A DNA stretch of 64,000 nt from Rhyacophila brunnea (lineage: Eukaryota > Arthropoda > Insecta > Trichoptera > Rhyacophilidae), in NCBI GenBank assembly GCA_022495005.1, contig JAGYXB010001002.1, positions 2,666,001 to 2,730,000 on the forward strand, read 5' to 3'. The position numbers and the translations under genes are program-made. Below, piece after piece: positions 12,900 through 63,016 of this stretch. The notes below the pieces were generated by a model, which worked only from the letters and a program-made list of their open reading frames with translations, was not told where the DNA came from and did no database searches. How positions within the stretch are numbered: position 1 is the stretch's first letter; every line of letters begins with the position of its first letter.

Positions 12900-13351
12900 T
12901 GAGTAATAATGTTCATAATGAATGAATTACCTGTGACAGGATCTCGTTGTTTATGGTTTATGCAATATCCGCCTTGTCCCTTCCAGAAAATTAGGGGATA
13001 TTGGAGAGCGTCCTATGAACGGTGTGTGTCAGCGATAAACTCCAGATTATTGTTTCTTCTTCGAATCACGATTTCTCGCGTCGATGTGCGGTCGCCAACC
13101 ATGATTCCAGCAATGTCGTCAACAACAGTCGCATTGAATCGACGTACGTGCTCTCCAGCTGGTGTTTTATCAGGATTGATGACAATAGCGTGATTGTCAC
13201 TTTGCAATTCGTGCATGTGTGCTTTGAAGAATTTCAATAATTCATTGTGCTCATTCAACAGGGCGTCCAGTTCGCCGACGATGCACCTGGCATTAGGCGA
13301 ATTGAGGTTATTGTAGCCGCAACGTGCATCCACATGATTGATGTCCTCACC
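12900..13351 (-). pseudogene. Helitron helicase-like N-terminal domain, downstream copy with a stop
   Basis: The minus-strand frame reads DARCGYNNLNSPNARCIVGE, then LLNEHNELLKFFKAHMHELQ, DKTPAGEHVRRFNATVVDDI and TREIVIRRRNNNLEFIADTH. A stop codon at 13013-13015 falls right after THRS, where related Helitron proteins have a Tyr. Past the stop the same frame continues DALQYPLIFWKGQGGY and NHKQRDPVTG for another 100 bases. The order and spacing fit the N-terminal helicase-like domain of insect Helitrons. The stop and the loss of everything further downstream make it a pseudogene. Confidence 0.88.
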
Positions 13352-13580
13352 GCCGCATGAAGTAGATTTGTAAAAATGTATGTGGTTCGTTTGGCATTGG
13401 CAGCAATGAGCCTACTTTGTGGTATACTTGGCCTTTGATTTTGAACGTAGAATGGAATTGTTGACCATTTGCCGCAGTATTGTGAACTATTTCTGTTGCT
13501 CCGGACGAAGTCATTTGGAAGCATGAATTGAATGTGCGAATGGACTTCAGGAACAGGTTTGAATCTAGAACCGTGCCGCA
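13352..13580 (-). repeat. Duplicate of the Helitron segment at about 14906-15130
   Basis: The segment (from tgaagtagatttgtaaaaat to ggaacaggtttgaatctaga on the plus strand) matches 14906-15125 with few substitutions. In the Helitron sense direction it lies directly before the block at 13130-13351, joined at GGEDINHVDARCGYN, which is the junction expected in an intact Helitron protein. It therefore seems to be the original A-B junction, and the flanking pieces are copies. Confidence 0.8.
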
Positions 13581-13858
13581 TTGAATCGACGTACGTGCTC
13601 TTCAGCTGGTGTTTTATCAGAATTGATGACAATAGCGTGATTGTCACTTTGCAATTCGTGCATGTGTGCTTTGAAGAATTTCAATAATTCATTGTGCTCA
13701 TTCAACAGGGCGTCCAGTTCGCCGACGATGCGCCTGGCATTAGGCGAATTGAGGCTATTGTAGCCGCAACGTGCATCTACATGATTGATGTCCTCACTAG
13801 CGGCGGCTGGTCTAACATCATGCAAGTGCACCGCACTGCTTGCATTGCTATGAAACAT
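13570..13858 (-). pseudogene. Helitron helicase-like N-terminal domain fragment, upstream duplicate
   Basis: The minus-strand frame reads DARCGYNSLNSPNARRIVGE, then LDALLNEHNELLKFFKAHMH and HAIVINSDKTPAEEHVRRFN, and then stops. This is the N-terminal helicase-like domain of Helitron proteins. It repeats the block at 13130-13351 almost base for base. Substitutions include Asn to Ser in the first motif and Gly to Glu in TPAGEH/TPAEEH. The fragment ends abruptly at the junction with the 13352-13580 duplicate, so it is a rearranged extra copy and not a working domain. Confidence 0.85.
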
Positions 13859-13860
13859 CG

Positions 13861-14859
13861 TTCAACATCGTAAATCATATTTTTTCTTCATAGGTTTTTA
13901 ATATTATCGCTCACTTATTGTAATGCAAACCACAAACCGATGTGCCCTTATTCCCAATCGGCACCAACAGGCACTATGCACCGTGTACGTCATCCTCGCT
14001 GAAATCGTTAGCGCTCCGGCAATAATTTTGTTTACTTAAAATGAACCCAAAGCTTAGTATTAACTAAAGCCATTATAAAACAACTTAAACCGTGCTAATC
14101 ATTTACGCCATGCGTAAGTTCCAGAATATCGAGCGCCGACCGGGTAAAATGACATCATATTGTTCTGAGTAGAGAGCAATTACAGATTTGAATTATGGTT
14201 TGTTATTATAGACGCCGCGACTTCACGCCGCGACTTCATGCTCAAATTATGTTTAGTATCATATTTAGCAATCTCGTATGTAAAATGCCTGTTGAACTAA
14301 ATACAATAGAATTCATTATTTTATAAATTTAAAATGGATAAGAAATATAATAGAATGTCGGTAAGATATTTTGATTTATGTGTACTGCAAATTAAATCAA
14401 TGAAGATAAAAATAATTTTGGTACCTACCGCGTTTCCGAACAATTAATATTTCATTATCATGTGTGTTAACTAAATGCGAAATGATGTCGGTTATTTATA
14501 ATAGGTATAAAAAATTATTAATTCATGAATTCTAGTGATAAGCTAATAAATCTTAATACTATTTCACAAAGTGCAGTTTCATAATAATCATTATTCATTC
14601 AGTGTACAAATTGCTAAAGATAATGTACTTATTTAGAATAAGATGGCTTACGTTGAAAGTCAGAGGTATTTATCTACTATAAGAGATGCAATCGTTTCTT
14701 AAAACAAATCCAATAAAGATTTAAGTAACTCGCAACATGTTTTATTAAAAATATAAAATATACAGGTAATTTCCAAAATGTCAATAACGTTTTGTCAAAT
14801 CAAAAATAACGCCGAATTGAATTCATTTTTCAATAAGGTAGGTTTCCAGCGCACCCTCA
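13861..14859. other. Helitron interior with no recognisable coding
   Basis: This stretch separates two pieces of the Helitron gene. It is AT-rich from about 14270 onward. The part at about 13900-14250 is less AT-rich, but no Helitron motif can be read in any frame. It may be captured or expanded filler DNA. I see no gene here. Confidence 0.5.
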
Positions 14860-15613
14860 AAAATTACAATCCAAAAAATCACCGGCCGCCACTGGTCCTC
14901 ACCGCCCATGAAGTAGATTTGTAAAAATTTATGTGGTTCGTTTGGCATTGGCAGCAATGAGCCTACTTTGTGGTATACTTGCCCTTTGATTTTGAACGTA
15001 GAATGGAATTGTTGACCATTTTCCGCAGTATTGTGAACTATTTCTGTTGCTCCGAACGAAGTCTTTTGGAAGCATGAATTGAATGTGCGAATGGACTTCA
15101 GGAACAGGTTTGAATCTGGAACCGTGCCGATGAGCAAGCCGTTCAATGGTTCTGGTGGTATCTCAATTTCTGGTAGTTGCACTTTTCCTGATGCGCAACA
15201 CATCCTGGCTGACTCATATTTTAATTTGAGTGCATGATAATGGGAACATTCTTTGTCCATAGCACCAATCAGCACTTTCGGATGAGCGGAATATTCAATA
15301 TCTGGCTCGTACTCGAATGCGAGACGAAGGAACGAAGCGGATGTAAATGTTCGATGTACTTGTTGGCGTTGTCGGTCATTTGCTCTGCGTGTGTTACGAA
15401 CCGGCGCGCTTGGCTCCGTTCCAATTGTCGTTGTTGATTTCGTTCAGCTCGTGCCTCTTGTGATTGAGATGCACGCAATTGCGACATGCTTACACGCACA
15501 TTTTTGTTTTCTTGTTGGATTTGTTCGTCTGTTCTTTCTGCTCTACTATTTCGCATGTTTGTTGCTTTATTCGTTCGACGGCCCAAATGGCCCCCCTTGC
15601 GTCTTGCTGGCAT
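14860..15613 (-). pseudogene. Helitron RepHel N-terminal region, frameshifted
   Basis: The frame opens at an ATG at 15613 (MPARRKGGHLGRRTN), followed by a highly charged Arg/Gln/Glu-rich region. Near 15320 the reading frame shifts. It then continues in the frame of 14823-15275, with the motifs VLIGAMDKECSHYHALK, CCASGKVQLPEIE, PPEPLNGLLIGTVPDSNLF, SFGATEIV and FKIKGQVYHKVGSLLPMPNE, ending around YFMGGEDQ at about 14890. These are characteristic of the start of insect Helitron RepHel proteins, upstream of the helicase-like N-terminal domain. After GGEDQ the protein reads into unrelated sequence, so the join to the next coding block (now at 13013-13351) has been lost. The product would be a truncated protein with no catalytic domain. 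The duplicate at 13352-13580 copies part of it. Confidence 0.85.
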
Positions 15614-16158
15614 TGCACTGTAATACACGCACATAAAAATAGATAAATAAAATAAATCGTACAAAATTTTGCACGCACTGCGTTGTGGTATGCCGAATGA
15701 AATGTCGCTTCTCTTGAATTCTTCTCGGACGTAGCGCCATCTGTCATTCAACAACATAAATAATTTCGTTCTCTTTGAAATACGAACGACGGTTAAATTT
15801 GTTCACACAAAAATAATAAAATCGCGATTTAAAAATGGGAGGGTGGGGGTAGGAGAGTGAAAATTTGGGGTTATAGGTATTTTTTTATGCCAAATAATAA
15901 AAAAATACAAAAAAAAAATTGTCAAAAAATAAAAGAAAATTTTTCTGGATAGAGATACCCTAATCACCTAGCGGTATGAATATACTTGTTGACCTATTCT
16001 CATACCTAAAAAATATACATAAAAAAATTCATAAAAATCGGTCGAGCCATTTCGGAGGAGTTCGACCACAAACATCGTGACACGAGATTTTTATATATAT
16101 AGAGATATTAAGATTTTTTTTATTTTTGTATATAATAATATTAGATAATGTTTATAAA

Positions 16159-16420: not shown

Positions 16421-17007
16421 AGTGTTTAAAATAATTTTCAAAAATATATTTTTTTTATGATTGTATATTGCATATTATGAAAATTGTTAAAATTGTTATA
16501 CAATAATTCTTTCATAATCGGTTCCATTTTCAGTCTGTAAACTCTTTTTAGGGCAATTTTAAACTTTAATTAGGTATGAACATGAAAACAATGTATGGAA
16601 ATCGGTTGGACATTGAAAATAACATAAAATTGCTCTTACATCAAAGAGTCAACAAATTTAATTTTTTTTTAAAACCTACAGTAAAAAATGTATTGCTCAA
16701 CATGTGAGTGTTTTATTAATTTGATGGCTTCGAAAGCATTCTTAAAACCCTTTATAGGGCAAAGCATTTTTTTCTTCATTTCAAACCGATTTCTACCATT
16801 TTGCATCAGATATTTCATATCTTAAAACAATTTCAATATAAAAATAAAAAATATCTATCAGAAATTTGGAAAAACTATAATTTATGGTGGTTTTTTTATC
16901 AACCAGTGCCCATTCAGGTGTTTTTTTTTTGATTTTATAATATATTTTTTTCAAATAAATCAAATAAATAATGGTTGTAAATATTATTTATTTAGTCATA
17001 AGAAAAG

Positions 17008-17220
17008 TTACATTTCAATTTTTATTTTTTTATACCCATTTACGTAATACTTATCAAAACATAGTATGCAAAGCAGTACATTACATTGCTTACAAAAATA
17101 AGATATGCGTTTTGGCTCTCTAGCCGTACTAGAAGCACATCGACAGCTCTTTTTCTTAGATTTACTCATAATAAACTGAAAAAAAATAAAACATATTATC
17201 GTAACAATACCTACCGACAT
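17008..17220 (-). pseudogene. C-terminal cysteine-rich end of a piggyBac-like transposase
   Basis: The frame is 70 codons. From the internal Met it reads MSKSKKKSCRCASSTAREPK, then RISYFCKQCNVLLCILCFDK, then YYVNGYKK. The spacing C-x-C...C-x2-C-x4-C-x2-C-F followed by a basic tail is the C-terminal zinc-binding domain seen in insect piggyBac-like transposases, which contacts the terminal repeats. It ends about 260 bp inside the right-hand (transposon 3') end, as expected for this family. The N-terminal and catalytic DDE regions, normally about 450-500 residues, are missing. This is a remnant and not a functional gene. Confidence 0.75.
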
Positions 17221-17270
17221 ACAACATTACCATATTACGAAATGACCGCGAAAAATGTAGTATTATGGGG

Positions 17271-17319
17271 GAGGCCTTCATCCAGCAGTTGATAGACCCC
17301 GCTGATTATGATGATGTTA
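17271..17319 (+). repeat. RTE-type retrotransposon 3' scrap
   Basis: The plus strand reads EAFIQQLIDPADYDDV, the extreme C-terminus typical of RTE-like reverse transcriptases in insects. It matches the same stretch at the end of the larger fragment near 61645-61690 on the minus strand. It is a 5'-truncated insertion inside the piggyBac-like remnant. Confidence 0.5.
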
Positions 17320-18030
17320 CTTCTACAGTCAAATATAATACAATACAACCCCATGAAAGTTGCGATTTTTATAGTAATTGAGTACTTTAGCATTCAATTG
17401 ATGTAACAACTAACAAAAAAACACCATTTCTTCTCGGATATTTTGAGAACTTTTCCGATCCCAAATATTCTGAGTAAAAATAAAATATATTTATGATAGT
17501 ATACTATATTCACAATAAAATATAACTATACACAACTGCCTAAGCCGCTTTTTTATGTTTAAAATAATTCTAGAAGTTAGCCGTGCGAATTGCAAATTTG
17601 AGGTTATGTACTTCCCGCTTGGCAATAGAATGATAAAACAAGTACTCTATCATAATATATTTGTAAAAAATATAATGTAAATCGATAAATAAATGCATAT
17701 TAAATAATTATGTACATACCCTTTTTCACAACACATAATATAAATGGGAACAAAATGACTTGCAAAGTCAAGTGTCACTCGCGAATTCATCGAGTCGCGA
17801 CCGCAAACGCGCAATGGCTGATATATCGACCAATCGTTGAAATAATGTTTTGCGAGCGATTGATGTACACTTCATATTAGATGGCTTATTTCGTAACCAG
17901 AGAATGTTCTCGACAACGTCTTGAAGCACTAAGGTTGATATTTCCATATTTAGTGTATGACTTATAGCTCATAAATGAGGTGGTTGATAAATAAACCGTT
18001 TTTGACCTTTGCCCTATAAAGGGTTTTAAG

Positions 18031-18929
18031 AGCGATAATTTTACTTTGAAACCTCGGTTTTCGGGAGCCCTAGGTACTTTACATGGAAATAACAGAAATA
18101 CAAAATATTATCATATTAGCTCGACAAAACTAAAATTGATGGTAATATTTTCAGGGCCTTATTTTTTATCATATTTTCGTTTAGTGGATTGAATTTATTA
18201 AAATAATAAATACAAAACAGTTATGTATTAGTTAGAGAATCACTTAATATGCGCTACCATATTAGGTACGTAGAAATAGTTTATTATACTATGTGCCCCA
18301 TTTTCTTTTGTGTGGTGCGTTAGGTACCGGATTACTTGGGGAAAATTCAAATGATACCTCTAGCTGCGTAACAACTGTGTAGGGTTTCACAGAAAATCCA
18401 CAAAATCAGTGGCTCACGTCATAACAATACATATTATTCAAACATATATATGCATACATCTTTTATATACTAACTTCTAACAAATAATATGTGTAATAAA
18501 TATATTATGCTATATTGTTTGTGCATTCATTAATGTTGTGGCTCTTGCTCAGCATGTATTAGTGTCAGAACAGATATTTATGAAATAAATTACGATACAA
18601 TGTTAAAGATCAGCTTAATAATATAAAGTAAGTAAGCAGCCTATCATATCGGGAGTGCTTAAAATAATATTTAATTAAAAATACATATTGTTGTCATACC
18701 ACAATATTTCATAAAAAAAATAACTTTATTAAACAAAATAGGATAATAATATTATCTGTGAGAGAAGAGAAAACGGAGATTAACTGAAGTCACCACTGTT
18801 GAAGAGAGTAAAATGAAGATTTTGTTTTGTAACTTTGTATATACTCGTATTTATGAAAAAAATACTAATTCAAATCACTTGACTTATTATTTTTATGATT
18901 TACGCATATTGGGGGTATTTATGGAGGCA
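18031..18929. other. Unassigned AT-rich DNA
   Basis: No gene, RNA or element end is recognised. The sequence is AT-rich throughout. Confidence 0.5.
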
Positions 18930-32060: not shown

Positions 32061-35049
32061 TACGCAAAAATCAGCAGACACGTTTTTTATTGGTCAGTAT
32101 ATTCACGTAAGTATTATAGAAATAATTCGCAATGCCCTAAAATATACAGACAATAAAACATATTTATTATTTATATGATTCTGAGCAATGGCACTGTATC
32201 AAAATTATGGCACACGCACGTGATTTGGTCACGCTGAAATTAATCAATATCTATACCTCCGAGATATTATTATCAAATTTCATTAATATTGGCAAACATC
32301 TTTGTATTTTTTTTAATATTATGACGTACTTCGAATTATATAATATATTTAGTAACGAATTCTAAATTATTAAGTAAGTAAATTAATATATATGATTATA
32401 TACGCAGGGTGAAAGTTGTATAAACATTTATTGTAATTTTTACGAGAAATGGATGTTTGCCGATACAAAATCTAAGTAATACATTAAATCGTGTGTATTA
32501 TTTGTTAAAAAGGTTGAATTTTAACTTCTTAAAAAGTAGTAAAGTAAGTAAAAAAAAAAGAATTACAAATTACAATTACAATAGTTCAAATTAAAAATTG
32601 GAGACACTCAGACGCCGTTTAGGAGTTCAGATACTTGAATAACTCTTCTTATGCATTGATTTCGTATTATCAACAATAAATGGTACATTTTTTAGTCTTC
32701 TGCGTGCATTGAATAAAAAAGTTAACATTTTCATTATTTATATTATTATTACGAGAGAATTTCTGTATCGTATCTATAAAATTCGATTTGGCTTTGAATA
32801 AACCAAATTACAGTTTAAGGTTTCAAATTCACATAACGATACGCTATTTCGATGAAAGGAGACAACACGCTGTTTGTATTCCGGATCATACGTCTTCTTA
32901 GTACACTATGTGCAACATAATAAATCACATTTTAAAAATATTCAAGGAAAAACCGGACTATGTCCATTATAATAAAGTTAACAAAAATAAATCATATTGT
33001 ATTAAAATTTTAAAGTTTTAATGTAACCTAACCTAACTTAACAAATCTGATGGATTATTTTAGAGTAGGCTATGACAAAATACATCACCCTGGTCGTGGG
33101 TTTTAGGCTAATTTGGTGCGAATACGTTGTCTATGAAAACTAAAATAAGGAATAGGGCAAACATTTTATATAAAACACTTGGTTTTAGAAGTCTGTGTAT
33201 GGTTGGTAGTATAACTATTTTATGTTGAAAAAATTTAAAAAAATGTCAAGCACATTAAGGACTGCAAAGAAAATACTATTGTCTTTTTATAAACCTACTA
33301 GTAAATAGTAAAAGAAATTGAATGTCGAATCTAAATAAGATAACCAAAAAATCACTAATATCTATTAAAAATCATGCACATAGATATATATTATAAAAAT
33401 TGCGGATGAAGAATATAATCTATATAATACCAATTATTACTAACAATTGAAGCTGGATTTGACAGTTTATGAGTATACTATATAAGTACCAATACAAGAG
33501 AAAAAAGTAATTATTATTTAATCAGAATCCATTTCCAGATAATATAAAAATGAATGTGGCAGACTTTAAAACCAATAGACTCAAATATATAGAAAAAATA
33601 TATATATTATATACGTTGTCAGCGTAAACTGCATTGCTTTCCAAATAAATAAAAACATGACATATGGTTGACAGGTGTTTTTGTTGTTAAAATACTGTTA
33701 TATGTAAATATATGGATTGTTCATCCAAATAAGAATGATTCAATATAATAAAATATATTTAAGTATAAATATTACCTCATTGTAGGTGTGGTAAATAAAA
33801 GAGTAGGTACCAATGTGAAGCTTTAAATTTTGATAATAAATTAAATTAGCTTACATCCTATTTATCATAGTTTTACTTGCGCCCCACTTACAAAGTAATA
33901 ACTTTAGAATATACATACATATTTATAGACATATTTATTGCCTTTTATTTATCTACTTATTAGTTTTTTTATTTTCTTTCTTTCGTGGTTGTAAACTGTT
34001 TGATTTTTTTGAAGTTTTCCCATCTATTTTTTTCCAATTTTTCCAGAGCAAATTTGTGACTCGACGACTCATATCTGGTTTGCGCACACGTTAAACTCGA
34101 AATGAAAACGAATCACAATTTATGCTGACTTTGACATTGACTTCTGCTATTATTCCCAAGTGACCAATATTGGAAACTGCAGTTGGAACGTGGTATGACT
34201 CAATTCAAAGAAAATCTGGACTCAAGCCAAAGAAATTTCCCGCTCAGCCGAATATGCGACTCTTCGCGCTGTCATGCAACGAATAACGAACGGGAATTCG
34301 CATATTTATTTATTTATACTGGCTATTACTCTTGAATACTGAGTATATCTCGCCCGTGTTGGCTTTCATATTATGAATCAACAATATAATGGTAACCAAA
34401 AAATATGAACAGTAAGTATACATACTGTATTTGTAGCGATCAATGACTTCGGGCCTTGTCAGCATTATTTCGACAGTGTAAGAATTAGGAAGTCATTTAA
34501 ACTATCGCACACTCGTCGAATCTACAATCAGCATATTCTACACGCGTGACATTCTTCGATGGGATCGAAACGTTTGAAGTGCAATAATGTAGAAGCCAGC
34601 ATATTTCTCAATTGCAAACTTCTTCAGCAATGACTCGCACTTAACCAAATATTCAAGCATATAATTAGCGGGTCATATTTGATGAGTAAGTCAGTCTAAA
34701 TACATATTAGTATCAATCTTAATCTCAGTCCGATCAGTAAGCTTCGTAACCGTCGCTCCGCACCGCATTTTATTCCACCAAGACCCGGACCTTGGAACAG
34801 TATCATAAGTATTGTAATATAACGCTCTTATAACATACTCTTGTACTAACTATTTACGCTGCAAATAAAACTCGCTCCTCTATTCATCGGAGCAACCACC
34901 ACATCTCGATTTTTCATCTGTCCTCCTGACGACTCTCCATCTACACCTACTGGTCATCCCCAATCACAGCAGCTGTCCCTCAACAACGAGACCCGCCAAA
35001 TATTTATTATTTATTTAATTAGATCTACAATCTGGTATAAGTCTTGGCC
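32061..35049. other. Mostly unassigned; SINE scrap at 32430-32475 and a GC-richer stretch at about 34030-34990
   Basis: At 32430-32475 the sequence tttttacgagaaatggatgt matches the SINE body. A CCTAACCTAACTT run lies at about 33028-33040. From about 34030 to 34990 base composition rises. The part at 34690-34990 has an AATAAA at 34864-34869 followed by a C-rich run, which could be a decayed LTR or transcript end, but no TG...CA boundaries with a target duplication were found. Confidence 0.35.
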
Positions 35050-39609: not shown

Positions 39610-39611
39610 TA

Positions 39612-40910
39612 CGAGGGTGGGTCAATAAGTCCTTAGAAAAGCCGACAGGTGGCGCGACTAGTACTGTAAGCGGTTTGTTTTCATGCAGCGGCACTGCCGA
39701 TTCAGTATGCTGCGAAGTTTCAATCAGATTGGTCGGGTTGTTGTGTGTTTCTCGTACATTTAAAAAAAAAATTTTGCTTGTGGAAAATGGAAAAATGGAA
39801 AATGGAGAAAATTGAGTTTAGAGCTGTTATTAAACATTTTAATATAAAAGGGTTAACAGCAAAGGAAATAAAAAATGAGTTGGATTTAGTTCACGGCATA
39901 TCTGCTCCTTCACTTGCAACTATTTATAACTGGTTAAATGAATTTAAACGTGGTCGTACATCAACAAAGGATGAACCACGCTCAGGACGTCCTGTAGAGG
40001 TGACTACACCAGAAATGATCAATAAAATCCACGATATGGTGTTGAGTGACCGAAGATTAAAGTTGAGTGAGATAATTGAGGTTACAGGGATCTCAAAGGT
40101 AGCGTCATTTCTATTTTACATGACAAATTGGGCATGAAAAATATTTCTGCAAGATGGGTGCCGCGTTTGCTCACAGTCGACAATAAACGCAATAGGGTGG
40201 TGGCCTCTAAAGCCCTGTTGTCGCTCATGCAACGCAATCCGGATGAATTTTTTCGTCGCTTTGTGACTGTAGATGAAACATGGATACACCACACTACTCC
40301 CGAGACGAAAGAACAGTCAAAGCAGTGGATTGCGAAGGCAAACCATGACCAAAGAAGGCGAAAACCGTAAAATCAGCTGGTAAGGTTATGGCTACTGTAT
40401 TTTGGGATGCACGTGGAATTATTTTCGTTGACTATTTGGAAAAAGGAAAAACAATAACAGAGGATTATTATGCATCTTTATTGGACCAGCTAAAAACAAA
40501 ATTGAAGAAAAACGGCCTCATTTAAACAGGAAAAAAATCCTCTTTTATCAGGACAATGCCAGTGTTCACACATGTTTACGATCAATGGCTAAAATTGAAG
40601 AATTGAAGTTCGAATTGGTCGACCACCCACCGTATTCGCCAGATTTAGCCCCAGTGACTTTTTCCTTTTCCCAAACTTAAAAAAATGGCTAAGTGGACAA
40701 CGTTTTTTTTCAAATGAAGAAGTCATCGATCGGACAAATGCTTATTTGAGGACCTTCCGAAAACTTATTTTTCTGACGGTTTAAAAAAAATTGAGAAACG
40801 TCTTACCAAGTGTATTGAGCTCCAAGAAGATTATGTTGAGAAATAAAAAAATAAAATAAAATAAAAACTGTTTTAATGCTTTTTTCTAAGGAATTATTGA
40901 CCCACCCTCG
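39612..40910 (+). mobile_element. mariner transposon, full length but decayed
   Basis: Terminal inverted repeats are CGAGGGTGGGTCAATAAGTC at 39612 and, inverted, the same with one mismatch (AAT for AAG) ending at 40910. The match extends about 29 bases. The element is 1299 bp, the usual mariner size, and is flanked by TA at 39610-39611 and 40911-40912, the expected target duplication. It holds one transposase gene in the plus direction. Confidence 0.96.
39787..40846 (+). pseudogene. mariner transposase, DD34D type, with several frameshifts
   Basis: The transposase cuts and joins the element at TA sites. The start chosen is the ATG at 39787, in frame with FRAVIKHFNIKGLTAKEIKN and the helix-turn-helix region SAPSLATIYNWLNEFKRGRT, followed by the linker motif EPRSGRPVE. 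A one-base loss near 40097 shifts the frame at ISKGS. The next frame carries ARWVPRLLT and the catalytic VTVDETWIHH (Asp at 40272-40274). Further shifts occur near 40331, 40512, 40653 and 40745. Between them stand VMATVFWDARGIIFVDYL, LFYQDNASVHTC (Asp at 40552-40554), and YSPDLAP followed by DFFLF (Asp at 40656-40658). The spacing of the last two Asp residues is 34 residues once the lost base is allowed for, which is the mariner DD34D signature. All catalytic Asp codons survive, but no frame encodes the whole about 350-residue protein. It is therefore inactive. Confidence 0.93.
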
Positions 40911-43900
40911 TACGTGTACGATTGCATATATTTTTATCAATTGCCTAACTTGACGTAAAGCTTCAAAAACCGTCGTTTTCTCAACTCGACCACTATGATT
41001 TTAATCTTGATTAAACCAATGAAATAGTGAGTAAATAAATATATACAAATAATAATAAAAGCAAATTTTTTCTCGACATTTATTTTTGAAATGTTTTATT
41101 CAATTTCATTTTCTACAAGTTTTGAGACAAATAAATCGTAGATAAACTTTTGATTAAATAATATATATCAATGTTAAGTGGCATTTTTTGAATTATATGA
41201 AAAGTTTTATGATACAATATTTGTTATTGAATATAAAACTCATATGATCCATAGTTTTGAGAATACTTGACAATAAGAATTACAGTTTTACTTATGAAAT
41301 ATTAGAAGTACCCATTTAATAATATAATTTACTGTATAAACGTATTTTTTTCACAATATTCTAGAGTCTAGATAAAGCGAATACGGGTTTTAATAATTTA
41401 TTAATATATTATTACATACTTACCCACATGGCTTTTAAAAAATATGTTATTATAAAAAAAAATACTATTGATTAAGGGTATTTTGGTGGAATTTTAATTT
41501 CAATTTCAATAATTGGGCCGGTGAGTGTGCATTATCAAATATGTATAATAATTAAAGTTGCGTTTATGGATTCAAACTCTATTATAATAGTTCATAAAAG
41601 ATTTTTTTGTTAATAATTATACAATATTACATTTGTTTATATTGACAGCTATTTCAAGATATTGCCTAAGAAACGTATATTAAGATCGCTCTAGGCATAT
41701 AGTGTTTTAAGATAGAAAACTCAAAAATCGTAGAATTAAAAAAAAACTTTGTTTTTTAAACGATTAAAATACACTGGCTTACTTTTATCATGTCACCTCT
41801 AAAGTAATTAATAATTGTGGTAAGCTATGATAACGAAATCTTAAAAATCTTAGATGCAACTCACATTTTTATTTGATTATAAGCTTGTATTTACTTGAGG
41901 GTTGAAGTTTTTTCAAAGAAATTGTGGTTAAAAAAACTTTCAGCATTCTTTTCTTTAAAACCACAAACAAAAGAATAGGTACTTATATTATTTTATTTGG
42001 TCATTATCTTTCTCACAAAGGATAATCATATTAAAATCTCGATGGAATTAGTCTACAAAATCCACAAGGCATTATGTTATATAGATTCTTGAATTATAAA
42101 TGATATTATAATATTATTTGCTATAATATCGTAGGATTTACTATTTTATATATAATTTTCATGTTATTAAAAAATATGTGCTTTAAGATATATTTTAATA
42201 TCTATAGAGTACATTATTTGATTAAAAAATCAAGACGTCTTTTGTATAAATTTTTGTGGGCTCACTAAACATTGAATGCTTGGTTATAATTATTATCATA
42301 AGAAGTTTTAAATAACACACGTACTTCCCAGCTAAATGCAACTTTGTAATTGCTTCACTTCAGTGTCTACACCCGATAAAGGTCATTTATTTAAAGTCAG
42401 CATTTTTAAGCAAATTGACTATTAAAAATATTAAATGATAAATATCTATGCACTTTTCTACGAAACTCAAAGGTTTTAGTGACAATTTACGCGGGCTGTC
42501 AAAAATTACTTTATGGTGATATTATACCTTTCAATGTTGTTTACCTTTTTAAATTATTTGACTAATATATTTAAATCAAACACTAACGCAACAGAAGCAT
42601 TAACATTAAAAAAACTACTTATTACTACTCACATATTGATTTCATAATAATGCACTGGTCAGTCATAATTAATTTAACCTTTATAACGTTTTATAATTAA
42701 TTACAATAGTTACTACGTTTTAGGTATTATTAAAAAAAATGATGAATGAACTATTTGTATAATAATTAATTTAACATTATTATACTCGTACCTACAACCT
42801 TAACGTATTATTAAATATGATACATTGTATGCATAATCTAGAATACGCTAATGAAGATTTAATATAGGCATTAGTCTACTTTACAAGAAAGCATTTTTTT
42901 ATCGTAGTAATTTCTCATATTTCCTAAAATTAAGTATTATATCTTTATAAGTTTTGCAGGCAAAAATTAATAAAACATTGAAGATTTATCGATTGAATAA
43001 TTAAAACATAGGTAGGAATGAGACGATTAATTTTATTCCTTCTACTTTCCTTTTGGGAGAATCTCATTTTAATAATCGTTTTTGGCATGAATAAGAACCG
43101 TTATTAATCAAAGTTAATATTCTGCGTAAATTTTCTTTATTAAAATTGTGAAAAATTTCAATACTAAATATTTTTCTTGGCTTTTCAGCTTTCCCTTTCC
43201 GTATGTTTGTAATCTTGTAAATCCTATCGAATATTGACCAATACATTACATTCATGAAAATTATTTTAACGTATATTTCAACTAACACACAATATGTTGC
43301 AATCATACTACTCAACATTAAATGAATGACACACTTTAATAATATTATTGTTGAAAAATAAACATTAGAGCAATAATAATTGTCATCGTTTCCTCAATCA
43401 TAACTAAATCATTAGTGTCTGCTTTGATTTGTAACTATGACAATATCTATTGTTATAAATGTACTGCGTTAATATAAAAAAGGCCATATATGAATCCTAA
43501 CTCAACTAATCGATTCCATCACGAGACGAACTACTATTGTCACGAATTATTACTCGAAATACTCGTAGTAATCTCTTGGCCATATCAATCTCACCAGTAT
43601 ATCATTAGACGCGATATTAATCTCGACGTTTACATCTTTATTACAGTATTATTTCATTTTTGTACAGACGTGATTCGTTCCCACATCATCAACTTCCAAA
43701 CATACTTGAACACGAATATTATGAAATGGTAAGTGTGTATATACTACGATGCAATAATTATTATCTTACGTAGTATCTATTTTATGAGGTAAATACGTGG
43801 TCTTTTAAAACTTAACAACTTAAACCGTACAAAACCTTCCGTAATTTGGTGACCAGCTTGTTTCGTGGTTTGGTTGAGTACAATTAAGTATTTTTTCTTA

Positions 43901-52675: not shown

Positions 52676-53468
52676 CCTACTTCAATTTAAGTTTCCTGTT
52701 ACACAAAAAGGATAACGTTACATGCAAATTTTTTATTTTAAATTATTGACATTTAAATTCAACATCAACTTGAATATACATCCGTCATACCTATATACAT
52801 CTTGCTGATAACATTAAGATATAACTCATTCTCCGGTAAAATATAATATTCAATATAAAGGTATTTGACCTTTAACCAATATTGTTTTCGCGGATGGCAC
52901 ATTTTCATTTTTATATGCTACGCTAAATATATTTAAGGGGTTTCGCTATGTTTACTAAAATATAATAGGGTTCCGTGTCTCAAGAAAATTGAGCAACGCA
53001 ACTCTCAGCTAACAGCATCAGTCATGACCATTAAATTACATTACCTATTTTTTATGTAGTATAATATTATTTATATTTAAAACGAGTAAATTGTAGAATG
53101 AAATCGTATTTTTTTTTCTTTCGTATAAAGCATTTTCAACATCCGAATATTTCTTCCTGATTCGTATAAGTGTCAAAATGTTGTAACTGCAAAACGTAGT
53201 TTATTGGTTCAATCAACAAAAACTTTCTTTTTGTTGGCTACAAAGGAATTTCTGAAGGACATTTATAATAATATTAATATATACATTTTCTCTGTATTTT
53301 AGATTTAATAGAGATAAAATCAAAAAAAGCACCTAAAAAACATAATGGCATAAATATTTTTTTATTTATATTTAAAAATTATTAAGTAAGAGTAGTTTTA
53401 AATGGTAATATTTTTAGTTGAAGAAATATTTACTCATGATGACGATGCCAATATAAGATTTTTGGTAC
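52676..53468. other. Unassigned AT-rich DNA
   Basis: No gene or repeat is recognised. Confidence 0.5.
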
Positions 53469-53580
53469 TTTGAAAATACCCGATATACTGGATTATTGGG
53501 TTAATTTAGGTTGGGTTAGGTTAGGTTAGGTTTGGTTAGGTTAACCTTACAAATAATCCAGTATATCGGGTATTTTCAAA
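53469..53580. repeat. Perfect 29-bp inverted repeat enclosing TTAGG-type repeats
   Basis: Arm 53469-53497 and arm 53552-53580 are exact reverse complements over 29 bases, with the core ACCCGATATACTGGATTATT. The 54-base loop holds GGTTGGGTTAGGTTAGGTTA and GGTTTGGTTAGGTTAACC. TTAGG is the canonical telomere repeat of most insects. The perfect arms in otherwise decayed DNA point to a recent or conserved foldback element. No coding is possible at this size. Confidence 0.9.
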
Positions 53581-56099
53581 ATGTGTTTGCCGCTGTATTC
53601 CTCATAACCGAACTGTACCGATTTTTAAATGATATTAGAGTTAATTATTATATTAAAAGTGTAAGAGAGCTAATTTTAACCAAGGCTTGAAAATCCCAAG
53701 TTATGAATAAAATGACATTTAATTTATCAATTTCGCCCATTTTGTACTAGCAGTTTCGCGTAGTTTTATTTACAAAAAATATTTTTATTATTATTTATTT
53801 CAATAAAAAAATACTTCTTTCGATATTTTTATACCTGCCTGAAATAATTTGTTAAATACATTTGATAACCCCAAAGCATTTGAAATCAATGTATAGTTAG
53901 ATGAGTAACGATATTTTTGTTATAATAACTATACATTTTATTATAATAAGTATTACTTTTATCTAAAACTAACAAAACAAAATATACCACACCTATATTT
54001 GTGCTAGGATCAAAATATTTTAACAGCTGATACTATAATTGAATGATGTTGTTAATCATTCAGAAAATATATTATTATTACAGATTTTATAATTTAATTG
54101 ATAATATGAGATTAGTTGCTAATATTCTTTGTAATATTTTGTAATATTTTGATACTAGAGATCACATTTTAAAAAATCCTATACAAGTAAAGTTGTTAGA
54201 TTTTAGTTATGTTGAAAAATTTACCATTTAAATATATCGGCTGTGACAAATTAGATACATTATTTCTAATCAATTACGCCCATATGTCACAGGTTGCTAA
54301 CACACTACTAAGACTTAGGTGGGGTCCTTAAACCCCAGGTAAAGTAACACGATCAGCGAAATGGAGTACCAGAGCAAACAACCACCAGTTTTTTTTATTA
54401 TTGTCTCATATAATCTATAGAAGCCATCACAAGGTGAATTTTGGTAATATAACATGGAGAAAATCAATGTTCCACCATTTTTGTCGTGTAAGTAAATATT
54501 GTGTGTAAGTATTTTTATATTTTTTAGGGGGAATTAATTTGCCTCTCGATTAGTTTGTTTTAGGTCGAATATCAATTCAATGGAATATTATTACTCCGAA
54601 ATATGATCATTATATAATATTCAAAGGACTCTATTTTATTAAAAGTTTTTCATATTATAAATTAGATGACGACTTTATTTACATAACGTATGGAGTCATA
54701 TTCATTTTTTATTAATCAACCAAGTTATATTTTTTAATTTTTAATTGTCGTTATAAAAATGTTATATGAAGAGAAACGTATTACAAATAGTTTTAAATTG
54801 AATCAATTTCATAATGAATATCCGCATATATATATATATATATATGTTTCTAGTATGCCGTAATTAGGAAGGGGCTAATATTATTAATGTTCCGGTCGTT
54901 ATTGTCGAAATATTTGAATTATTTCCCATTTCAACACGTTCTTTGTCACTCCCGATGTGCCTGTTTTTGAACCACAACTATCATACCTCAAACTTATTTG
55001 GTACAGCATTATATAATAAACTTATATTATAATATATAACAATTTGCATCCCGATTTGCCTATTATCTTACAAATAAAAGTATTGCAACTCCTTTTTAGA
55101 GACAAGTGAGGGTCGGGAGACCAAAACTAACTAGTTGAACTATAAAAAAAAATATGCAGCATCAGTGAAGAATTTTATTCCCAATGCGTACAATACATTC
55201 ACGTGATTATGCAAACCCCGGGTATTTATGTGATTTTTTAACTCGTATTACCACTACTATACTACATACTACCACTACATCTACTAACTGCCATTAGGTA
55301 TCTAGATTGCTAGCAGTGTTTAAAAGAAAATAATATTATATATTATAATATATGGTTTTGCTCAGAAGTTTCTATTTCCCTCACTTAATATCGTTATCTA
55401 TCTCGTCTCAGACTCCTAGCTTAAACAAAATTACACGACAAATACTAAATGCTGACTCTTTTTAAAATATATATTCCTTTTACAAACGTTTTTTTTTTCC
55501 TATATAAACATTTACTAGTCAATAATAAAATTTTAATATTACTTAAGCAAATTTATCTTTTTTATGGATAGTATTATCAAGTGTACTAAGAAGATACTGA
55601 GCCAGACGGTCGTTATGAGGAAGATTATTTATTTATGGAGTTAGATTAATTTGAATATTACTTTCTGCTTGTCAACTAGAGTTATTATGTGATAAAGTAT
55701 TATTTTTAGCAGAGTGGACCACGAGGCGAATAATATAATATTTTAGTAGCTTAAATAGTTTAAGTAGTTTATATTATAGCTCTCTTGTAAAGTTTTAAAT
55801 TAATAATCGCACCCTTTTAACCCATAGCTTACGGGCCGCACAAAATTGTGTTTTTGCTAATTACTTTTCAAATGCAAATTAACACGTTAATTACAAAATT
55901 AATTAAAAGGGCCCGTAAGCATTGTGTTTTTAACACTGTCAATAATATAAGTATATTAAAGTATATTATGTATAATATGAAAAGTAGGAATATTTAACTT
56001 TATAAAGAGTTACTGAATAAGAGATATTATAATATGTTTAATTTAAAATAAAAACAAAACGGTAGTAAATATCAAAATGTTTTTTTTTTATTTTCAAGA
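53581..56099. other. Unassigned AT-rich DNA
   Basis: It contains an AT dinucleotide run at 54826-54845 and a short inverted repeat (gcttacgggcc at 55826-55836 against gggcccgtaagc at 55910-55921). No gene is seen. Confidence 0.5.
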
Positions 56100-59774: not shown

Positions 59775-60292
59775 CAGTGGCGAAGAGTAAAGAAAGGTTG
59801 ATAAGATTCGACATAATTTGTGTACACTTAACTTTTTCAACCGAACGTATTTGTTTTTATTCAACTAAGACTACAATATGTACATTTATTAGTGTTTATT
59901 AGTTTTTAAAATTCAATAAAATCCTGCCTTACCCAAGTCATAGTTGATAATAGTAAAAAAATATTCGTTTATCTATAAAACATCTAAAAATATCTGATTA
60001 AACCGTACATCATATTGTTAAATATTTTATAGACGGAAGAATATTTTTTATTGATTATGATTTGGTTAGGCAGTGTGTGCACAATTTTTGTCGGATCACC
60101 TATAATAGCACACCTAAACTATTATGGTTGGGTTTAGGCAGGGTTTAATTGAATTTTAAAAACATACTAACATCATCTGCAATAGTATGTACCTACTATT
60201 AGTTCAAAGAAAACAAATAAATCTGACTGACAAAGTTTAGTGTGCATTATTTATGTCGAATCTTAACAACCTACTTCCACTCCTCGCCTCTG
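59775..60292. mobile_element. hAT-type MITE, copy 2 (most complete)
   Basis: The left end is CAGTGGCGAAGAG at 59775. The right end, read inversely, is CAGAGGCGAGGAG from 60292. The inverted arms remain alignable for about 200 bases, with matching blocks AAGATTCGACATAA, TATTTGTTTT and TTTTTAAAATTCAAT. Octamers atatacga (59767-59774) and atacacga (60293-60300) are 7 of 8 identical, an 8-bp target duplication typical of hAT. At 518 bp with no transposase it is non-autonomous. Confidence 0.88.
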
Positions 60293-62910: not shown

Positions 62911-63016
62911 CGTTATTTCGGCCATTCGGGATTAAGACCTTCGGGATTTTAACCTTTGGGATTTTAACTTTCGGGATTTAGGCTTTCGAGATTTCGGGCA
63001 TTCGGGATTTCGTCCG
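62911..63016 (+). repeat. Degenerate short tandem array of TTCGGGATTT units
   Basis: About six units of 14-18 bases follow each other, with variants cattcgggattaagac, cttcgggattttaac, ctttgggattttaac, tttcgggatttagg, ctttcgagatttcggg and cattcgggatttcg. It is not coding. Its role is unknown. Confidence 0.75.

What the first reader, a model, noticed from the sequence alone, without database searches (positions are those of the whole stretch)
53469..53580. Insect telomere-type TTAGG repeats held between perfect 29-bp inverted arms
The two arms are exact reverse complements over 29 bases, while nearly all other repeats in the window are eroded. The 54-base loop is a degenerate TTAGG array (TTAGG is established as the insect telomere unit). 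A foldback element carrying telomere-like DNA could come from break repair, telomerase-assisted healing, or a MITE family that spreads interstitial telomere repeats. The transcript would fold into a 29-bp hairpin that could feed small-RNA pathways.
Basis: partly seen in the sequence, partly recalled or inferred. Interest (0 to 1): 0.75.

Follow-up and report, generated by a model that had tools for sequence, protein, structure and literature searches.

The report
Jumping-gene relic carrying telomere-like repeats
This is one damaged copy of a very common, non-coding jumping gene, in what is probably an arthropod genome, whose copies carry a short array of telomere-type TTAGG repeats in their middle; it is an ordinary kind of mobile element with an unusual cargo, not a scar of chromosome repair.

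Summary
The perfect 29-bp arms and degenerate TTAGG loop are real, but the unit was cut too short. It is a 156-bp copy (53464-53619) of a MITE family whose majority sequence is 189 bp: 74-bp terminal inverted repeats (TIRs) beginning GGTAC, an inner (TAACC)n/TTAGG array, and 8-bp target-site duplications. The window copy has lost 34 bp of its left TIR, so the "arms" are what remains of a longer TIR; GATTTTT on both sides is its target duplication.

The family is huge: one 23-base TIR word has 2,948 + 2,940 matches in the 1.087-Gb genome; the reversed control has 0. Of 40 loci taken in contig order, 35 had paired ends; 19 of 35 had exact 8-bp duplications and 35 of 35 had at least 3 AACCT/AGGTT units. 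The array's start is recognisable in 28 of 30 parsed copies and its length varies, so it was inherited, not added here by telomerase.

Structure fits the Merlin superfamily. One of 13 Merlin-type transposase loci carries the family's first 15 bases in the right place, at one end only: likely, not proven. Whether the host's telomeres are TTAGG was not established.

The parts
53457..53463 (.). left target-site duplication GATTTTT (7 of the family's usual 8 bp)
   Evidence: identical 7 bases abut both ends of the element; 8-bp duplications in other copies
53464..53468 (+). outermost 5 bases (GGTAC) of the left terminal inverted repeat
   Evidence: 24 of 27 aligned copies end GTACC at the corresponding end and 26 of 27 begin GGTAC at the other
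53468..53469 (.). junction of a 34-bp deletion that removed positions 6-39 of the left terminal inverted repeat in this copy
   Evidence: removing 34 bp from the intact end reproduces the window sequence exactly
   Evidence: 29/29 complementary to 53552-53580
53498..53545 (+). family interior: degenerate TTAGG-type array ending in an inverted unit (GGTTAACC)
   Evidence: tandem repeat, period 5; same interior in other copies
   Evidence: many family matches end at query position 420 = 53619, some run on up to position 437; TIR length 74 bp in the majority sequence
53620..53626 (.). right target-site duplication GATTTTT

Best explanation
The feature is a non-autonomous DNA transposon (MITE), probably of the Merlin superfamily, in an internally deleted copy. 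A transposase supplied by another element would recognise the GGTACAGTTCGG... ends and insert the unit with an 8-bp target duplication. Between the TIRs the family carries a (TAACC)n/TTAGG-type array that was captured in an ancestor, is copied with the element, and grows or shrinks by five-base slippage. In the window copy a 34-bp deletion removed most of the outer left TIR, leaving 29 bp that look like complete perfect arms. Shown: family, ends, target duplications, shared array, deletion. Inferred: Merlin transposase as mover, a single capture, slippage.
For: 40 scored candidates each (of 1,047 and 1,642 first-look candidates). Exact 8-bp duplications in 21 of 28 paired copies of the similarity-ranked set (L010 with a one-base offset, L013 and L014 printed there as 9 bp) and 19 of 35 of the contig-order set, all at offset 0. 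74-bp TIR in the majority sequence of 27 copies. 5,888 end matches against 0 for the reversed-pattern control. Array with a recognisable start in 28 of 30 parsed copies (by eye) and element lengths often in 5-bp steps (184, 189, 194, 199). Window copy flanked by GATTTTT on both sides and lacking exactly 34 bp. Merlin: ends begin GG and the duplication is 8 bp, as PMC8101967 states for Merlin (passages). 13 matches to DDE_Tnp_IS1595 in this genome, one of them (L089/L097) with GGTACTGTTCGGTTA 539 bp upstream in the same orientation; expected by chance 0.00013 in the 13 loci.
Against: No autonomous partner with both ends was found. The Merlin locus with the shared end matches over 15 bases only; no right end was found downstream in the 4.5-kb stretch at up to 3 mismatches, and its frame has a stop. 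Among the other 12 Merlin loci only L087 and L095 show anything like the end, with 3 mismatches and downstream of the transposase. A family with about one end per 185 kb can lie near a transposase by chance, and L090 has such a neighbouring family fragment. The window copy's duplication is 7 bp, not 8. Sixteen of 35 contig-order copies lack an exact 8-bp duplication: 3 have 7 matching bases and 13 none. In one search, 1 of 28 has 7 and 6 none.
Confidence: 0.94

Rival explanations
1. Same MITE, but mobilised by a hAT, P-superfamily or MULE transposase, which also give 8-bp or near-8-bp duplications (recalled).
For: 8-bp duplications do not by themselves separate these superfamilies (recalled knowledge); Tetris, a foldback element, has 8-9 bp duplications in its complete copies (PMC4079207 passages).
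Against: The ends begin GG, as in Merlin, not with the CA(G) that I recall for hAT and P; the only transposase locus found with the same first 15 bases is Merlin-type. Only the Merlin domain was searched for in the genome, so the test is one-sided.
Confidence: 0.3
2. Repair scar: telomeric repeats added or captured at a double-strand break, with an inverted duplication of flanking DNA, as described for some horse interstitial telomeres.
For: Such loci exist: at one horse locus, telomeric insertion came with inverted duplications of 38 and 53 bp (PMC7215372 passages).
Against: The same ends and array recur in a large family with target duplications.
Confidence: 0.01
3. A functional hairpin-RNA or microRNA precursor.
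For: Very stable fold, z = -10.1 and -12.5 on the two strands.
Against: No Rfam match in the window at gathering thresholds; the fold follows from the TIRs of a multi-copy MITE; no transcription evidence was available.
Confidence: 0.02
4. Element without target duplications of the Spy type, inserted between AAA and TTT inside a palindromic target.
For: Within the 29-bp arms, AAA...TTT flank an inner repeat; considered before the genome copies were seen. The Spy target rule is recalled; its main paper was not held and other Spy papers were seen as a listing.
Against: The intact family end lies 39 bases outside the arm in full copies, and copies carry 8-bp duplications.
Confidence: 0.01

Closest known systems
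MITEs with hitchhiking microsatellites, e.g. lepidopteran (GTCY)n 'mobile microsatellites' (Coates et al. 2011, seen only as cited in PMC9659126)
   Same: short non-autonomous inverted-repeat element carrying and dispersing a variable tandem repeat
   Different: repeat here is the TTAGG-type pentamer; sequence relation to the lepidopteran elements was not tested
Merlin superfamily DNA transposons (PMC8101967, passages)
   Same: 5'-GG ends, TIR within 24-462 bp, 8-bp target duplication; Merlin-type transposases present in the genome
   Different: no coding capacity; no full-length partner with both ends found
Tetris foldback element of Drosophila virilis (PMC4079207, passages)
   Same: long inverted ends, internal tandem repeats, 8-9 bp duplications, no autonomous copy found
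   Different: Tetris repeats are about 220 bp and lie inside the TIRs; here a 5-bp array lies between them
Short interstitial telomeric sequences inserted at double-strand breaks (PMC7215372, passages)
   Same: short degenerate telomere-type array inside a chromosome
   Different: not a one-off insertion: the array is inherited cargo of a transposon family

Membership tests
MITE (non-autonomous TIR transposon) | terminal inverted repeats shared by many copies | tested here: met
   74-bp TIR in majority of 27 copies; 5,888 end matches, reversed control 0
MITE (non-autonomous TIR transposon) | constant-length target-site duplication | tested here: met
   exact 8 bp in 21 of 28 and 19 of 35; window copy 7 bp
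MITE (non-autonomous TIR transposon) | short, no coding capacity | tested here: met
   sampled paired copies 152-593 bp, 33 of 35 at 152-259 bp; too short for a transposase
Merlin superfamily | ends 5'-GG, TIR 24-462 bp, 8-9 bp duplication | tested here: met
   against the definition
Merlin superfamily | ends shared with an element encoding a DDE_Tnp_IS1595 transposase | tested here: inconclusive
   left 15 bases shared by 1 of 13 transposase loci; right end not found
Interstitial telomere from break repair | insertion lacking transposon ends | tested here: not met
   family ends and target duplications
Interstitial telomere of this host | unit equals the host telomere repeat | not tested
   the (TTAGG)10 search of the genome did not complete
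hAT, P or MULE superfamily | ends and transposase of that superfamily | not tested
   only the Merlin domain (PF12762) was searched in the genome

The most novel reading that the evidence does not exclude
A Merlin-type MITE has seeded thousands of telomere-type arrays through an arthropod genome, giving dispersed binding or break-healing sites for telomere proteins and a reservoir from which new telomeric or satellite arrays can grow (one copy, L047, already has a 69-base perfect run).
Probability: 0.12. Interest if true: 0.6.

Novelty: new member of a known kind. Interest (0 to 1): 0.3.

Why it matters
It shows that short interstitial TTAGG-type arrays can be transposon cargo rather than marks of chromosome fusion or break repair, which matters when such arrays are read as evidence of ancient chromosome ends or when TTAGG probes or k-mers are counted. 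My paper searches on this point (listings, plus passages of the papers named) showed no MITE described with a TTAGG array; the library lacks most subscription journals, so this is weak evidence of absence.

Tried and rejected
Before the genome answered I considered a mariner-type insertion with a TA duplication in an 18-bp palindromic target, and a Spy-type insertion without duplication. Four of 7,548 TA sites in the window have palindromes that long, three of them simple repeats, and the real family ends refute both ideas. Exact arm words were absent from viral contigs and genome contigs, as were a loop pattern and two TIR words in viral contigs; the tool warns that the window's own genome may be left out there. 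The 4.67-kb span between perfect family ends at L039 looked like an autonomous element, but its interior is another element with ends CAGTGGTCGGCAAACC and target duplication GGTTAACC lying in the array. I call it hAT-like from recall; none of the seven frames given to Pfam matched a hAT family. Host naming failed: the Helitron search (301 proteins, best 120 listed) named spiders, aphids, wasps, flies and others, and the Merlin search (265 proteins, best 120 listed, mostly unnamed) named molluscs, a spider, a sea spider and a sponge. So 'insect' is not proven; arthropod is my inference. A search with the L097 Merlin stretch did not complete.

Rows dropped: L025 (333 bp) and the unpaired L028 were left out, and the window locus L009 was replaced by the window copy. 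The 40 loci follow the order of the list (capped at its first 100 places), leaving out the window and L039, L040, L042, L043, already fetched; each locus has at least one exact end word. Of those four, L039 has an 8-bp duplication, L043 has one too but almost no array, L040 matches over 7 bases and L042 shows none. L010 and L011 appear to be one locus on two contigs (complementary duplications), and L050 and L055 share flanks, so copy counts include duplicated sequence. The threshold of 3 units can include two from the conserved AGGTTAACCT stretch, so copies at 3 have little array left. Duplications were sought within 3 bases or 2 bases of the ends. My notebook entry repeats the counts; the entry overstates the count (22 of 30), the right count being 21 of 28 paired.

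Full report
What was checked. The two arms (53469-53497, 53552-53580) are exact reverse complements over 29 bases around a 54-base loop. In 40 simulated 64-kb sequences with the window's dinucleotide frequencies the longest comparable repeat was 16 bp. The loop holds a TTAGG array, 7.6 copies at 87% match.

What it is. The window's own genome (G000, 1,086,822,381 bases in 2,118 contigs; window = C6:2666001-2730000) was searched with 53440-53610: 40 candidates were scored out of 1,047, and most matched from 53469 to the end of the query; many matched again in reverse from about 53543. A wider query, 53200-53900, gave 40 scored of 1,642 candidates; apart from the window itself, forward and reverse matches stopped between query positions 379 and 437, often at 420, which is window 53619, with 298 to 318 for short matches to the left arm.

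Anatomy of the family. In 30 loci (one of them the window), 28 had both ends within 400 bp; 21 of these 28 show an exact 8-bp target duplication, one shows 7 bp and six none. The majority sequence of 27 copies is 189 bp: it begins GGTACAGTTCGGTTATGAGG and ends in the complement, and its two halves match as a 74-bp TIR with two mismatches. Within single copies the two TIRs differ at 1 to 6 of 58-70 compared positions, so a perfect run of 29 is unremarkable. Substitutions against the majority average 3.3% (left TIR), 3.8% (array) and 2.6% (right TIR) in this set, which was ranked by similarity to the window and so may lean young.

Less biased sample. The 23-base TIR word GTTCGGTTATGAGGAATACAGCG has 2,948 forward and 2,940 reverse matches with up to one mismatch; the reversed control has 0. 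Forty loci taken in contig order from that list gave 35 with paired ends, 19 of 35 with exact 8-bp duplications, 3 with 7 bp, 13 with none, and 35 of 35 with at least three AACCT/AGGTT units (mean 6.7, range 3-18). Interior edges could be parsed in 30 of the 35; by eye 28 of those 30 begin with a recognisable form of GTTAACCTAACC, L053 and L082 do not, and the far edge ...TAAACTAACCCAAA is common but more variable. The number of TAACC units varies, and perfect runs reach 69 bases in L047. Against a strict rule, L043, outside this sample, has nearly lost the array.

The window copy. It is 156 bp, 53464-53619, flanked on both sides by GATTTTT. Relative to the intact end it lacks exactly 34 bp of the left TIR, from after GGTAC to before TTTGAAAA. 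This deletion explains why the arms seemed to stop at 29 bp and why no target duplication abuts them.

How it works. Best reading: a non-autonomous element moved by a transposase made elsewhere, with the TTAGG-type array as passive cargo. The inferred order of events is capture of the array once, spread with the element, and pentamer slippage in place. Ends beginning GG with 8-bp duplications fit Merlin as defined in PMC8101967 (passages). The genome has 13 matches to the Merlin DDE domain, which rings in 1 of 14 named control genomes. One, L089/L097, carries GGTACTGTTCGGTTA, identical over 15 bases to the T-variant family end, 539 bp upstream and in the same orientation; chance expectation over the 13 loci is 0.00013. 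The local match stops there, no right end was found downstream in 4.5 kb at up to 3 mismatches, the frame has a stop, and of the other 12 loci only L087 and L095 show 3-mismatch likenesses, downstream of the transposase. I put the Merlin assignment at about 0.65.

What it is not. Telomerase healing or break repair at this site is excluded by the copy family. A horse interstitial telomere with inverted duplications (PMC7215372, passages) was the nearest precedent for that idea. No Rfam family matches the window at gathering thresholds.

Novelty. MITEs that carry and spread microsatellites are known, for example lepidopteran (GTCY)n elements, as cited in the review PMC9659126 (passages), and the foldback element Tetris carries internal tandem repeats (PMC4079207, passages). 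The telomere-type cargo at this scale is the notable part. Whether TTAGG is this host's telomere unit is unknown because that search did not complete. The pea aphid, as one arthropod example, has TTAGG telomeres (PMC2826372, passages).

Noticed in passing
window 39610-40912: Mariner-like element with 19-bp perfect inverted ends TACGAGGGTGGGTCAATAA and transposase fragments (weak Mos1-type HTH and DDE_3 matches).
   Followed up: partly
window 13013-15802: Helitron-like remnants; one frame (14826-15443) has relatives named from spiders, aphids, wasps and others at up to 88% identity over part of its length, suggesting a widely shared element.
   Followed up: partly
window 16740-18031: Pair of perfect 25-bp inverted repeats TCTTAAAACCCTTTATAGGGCAAAG, about 1.3 kb apart, probably an element's ends.
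   Followed up: no
window 59802-60265: Nested inverted repeats (15 and 16 bp perfect) that look like another, older MITE.
   Followed up: no
window 33025-33041: Short TAACC run not seen as part of a copy of this family.
   Followed up: no
window 62925-63012: Tandem repeat of about 15 bp, unit TTCGGGATTTAGACT.
   Followed up: no
L039 514-5184: An element of about 4.5 kb (hAT-like by recall) inserted inside the array of a family copy, with GGTTAACC on both sides.
   Followed up: partly
L090 1000-2004: Open 335-aa Merlin-type frame with a fragment of this MITE family about 200 bp downstream.
   Followed up: partly
L010 and L011: Copies on two contigs with complementary target duplications: probably one locus assembled twice, so genome-wide counts include duplicates.
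   Followed up: no
L002 / L029: Copy whose flanks are themselves inverted (TGAAGAAAATATTT / AAATATTTTCTTCA): a palindromic target or insertion into another inverted repeat.
   Followed up: no
L029 and L032: Two copies with different flanks share the same 12-bp deletion in one TIR, hinting that a TIR-deleted subfamily still moved.
   Followed up: no
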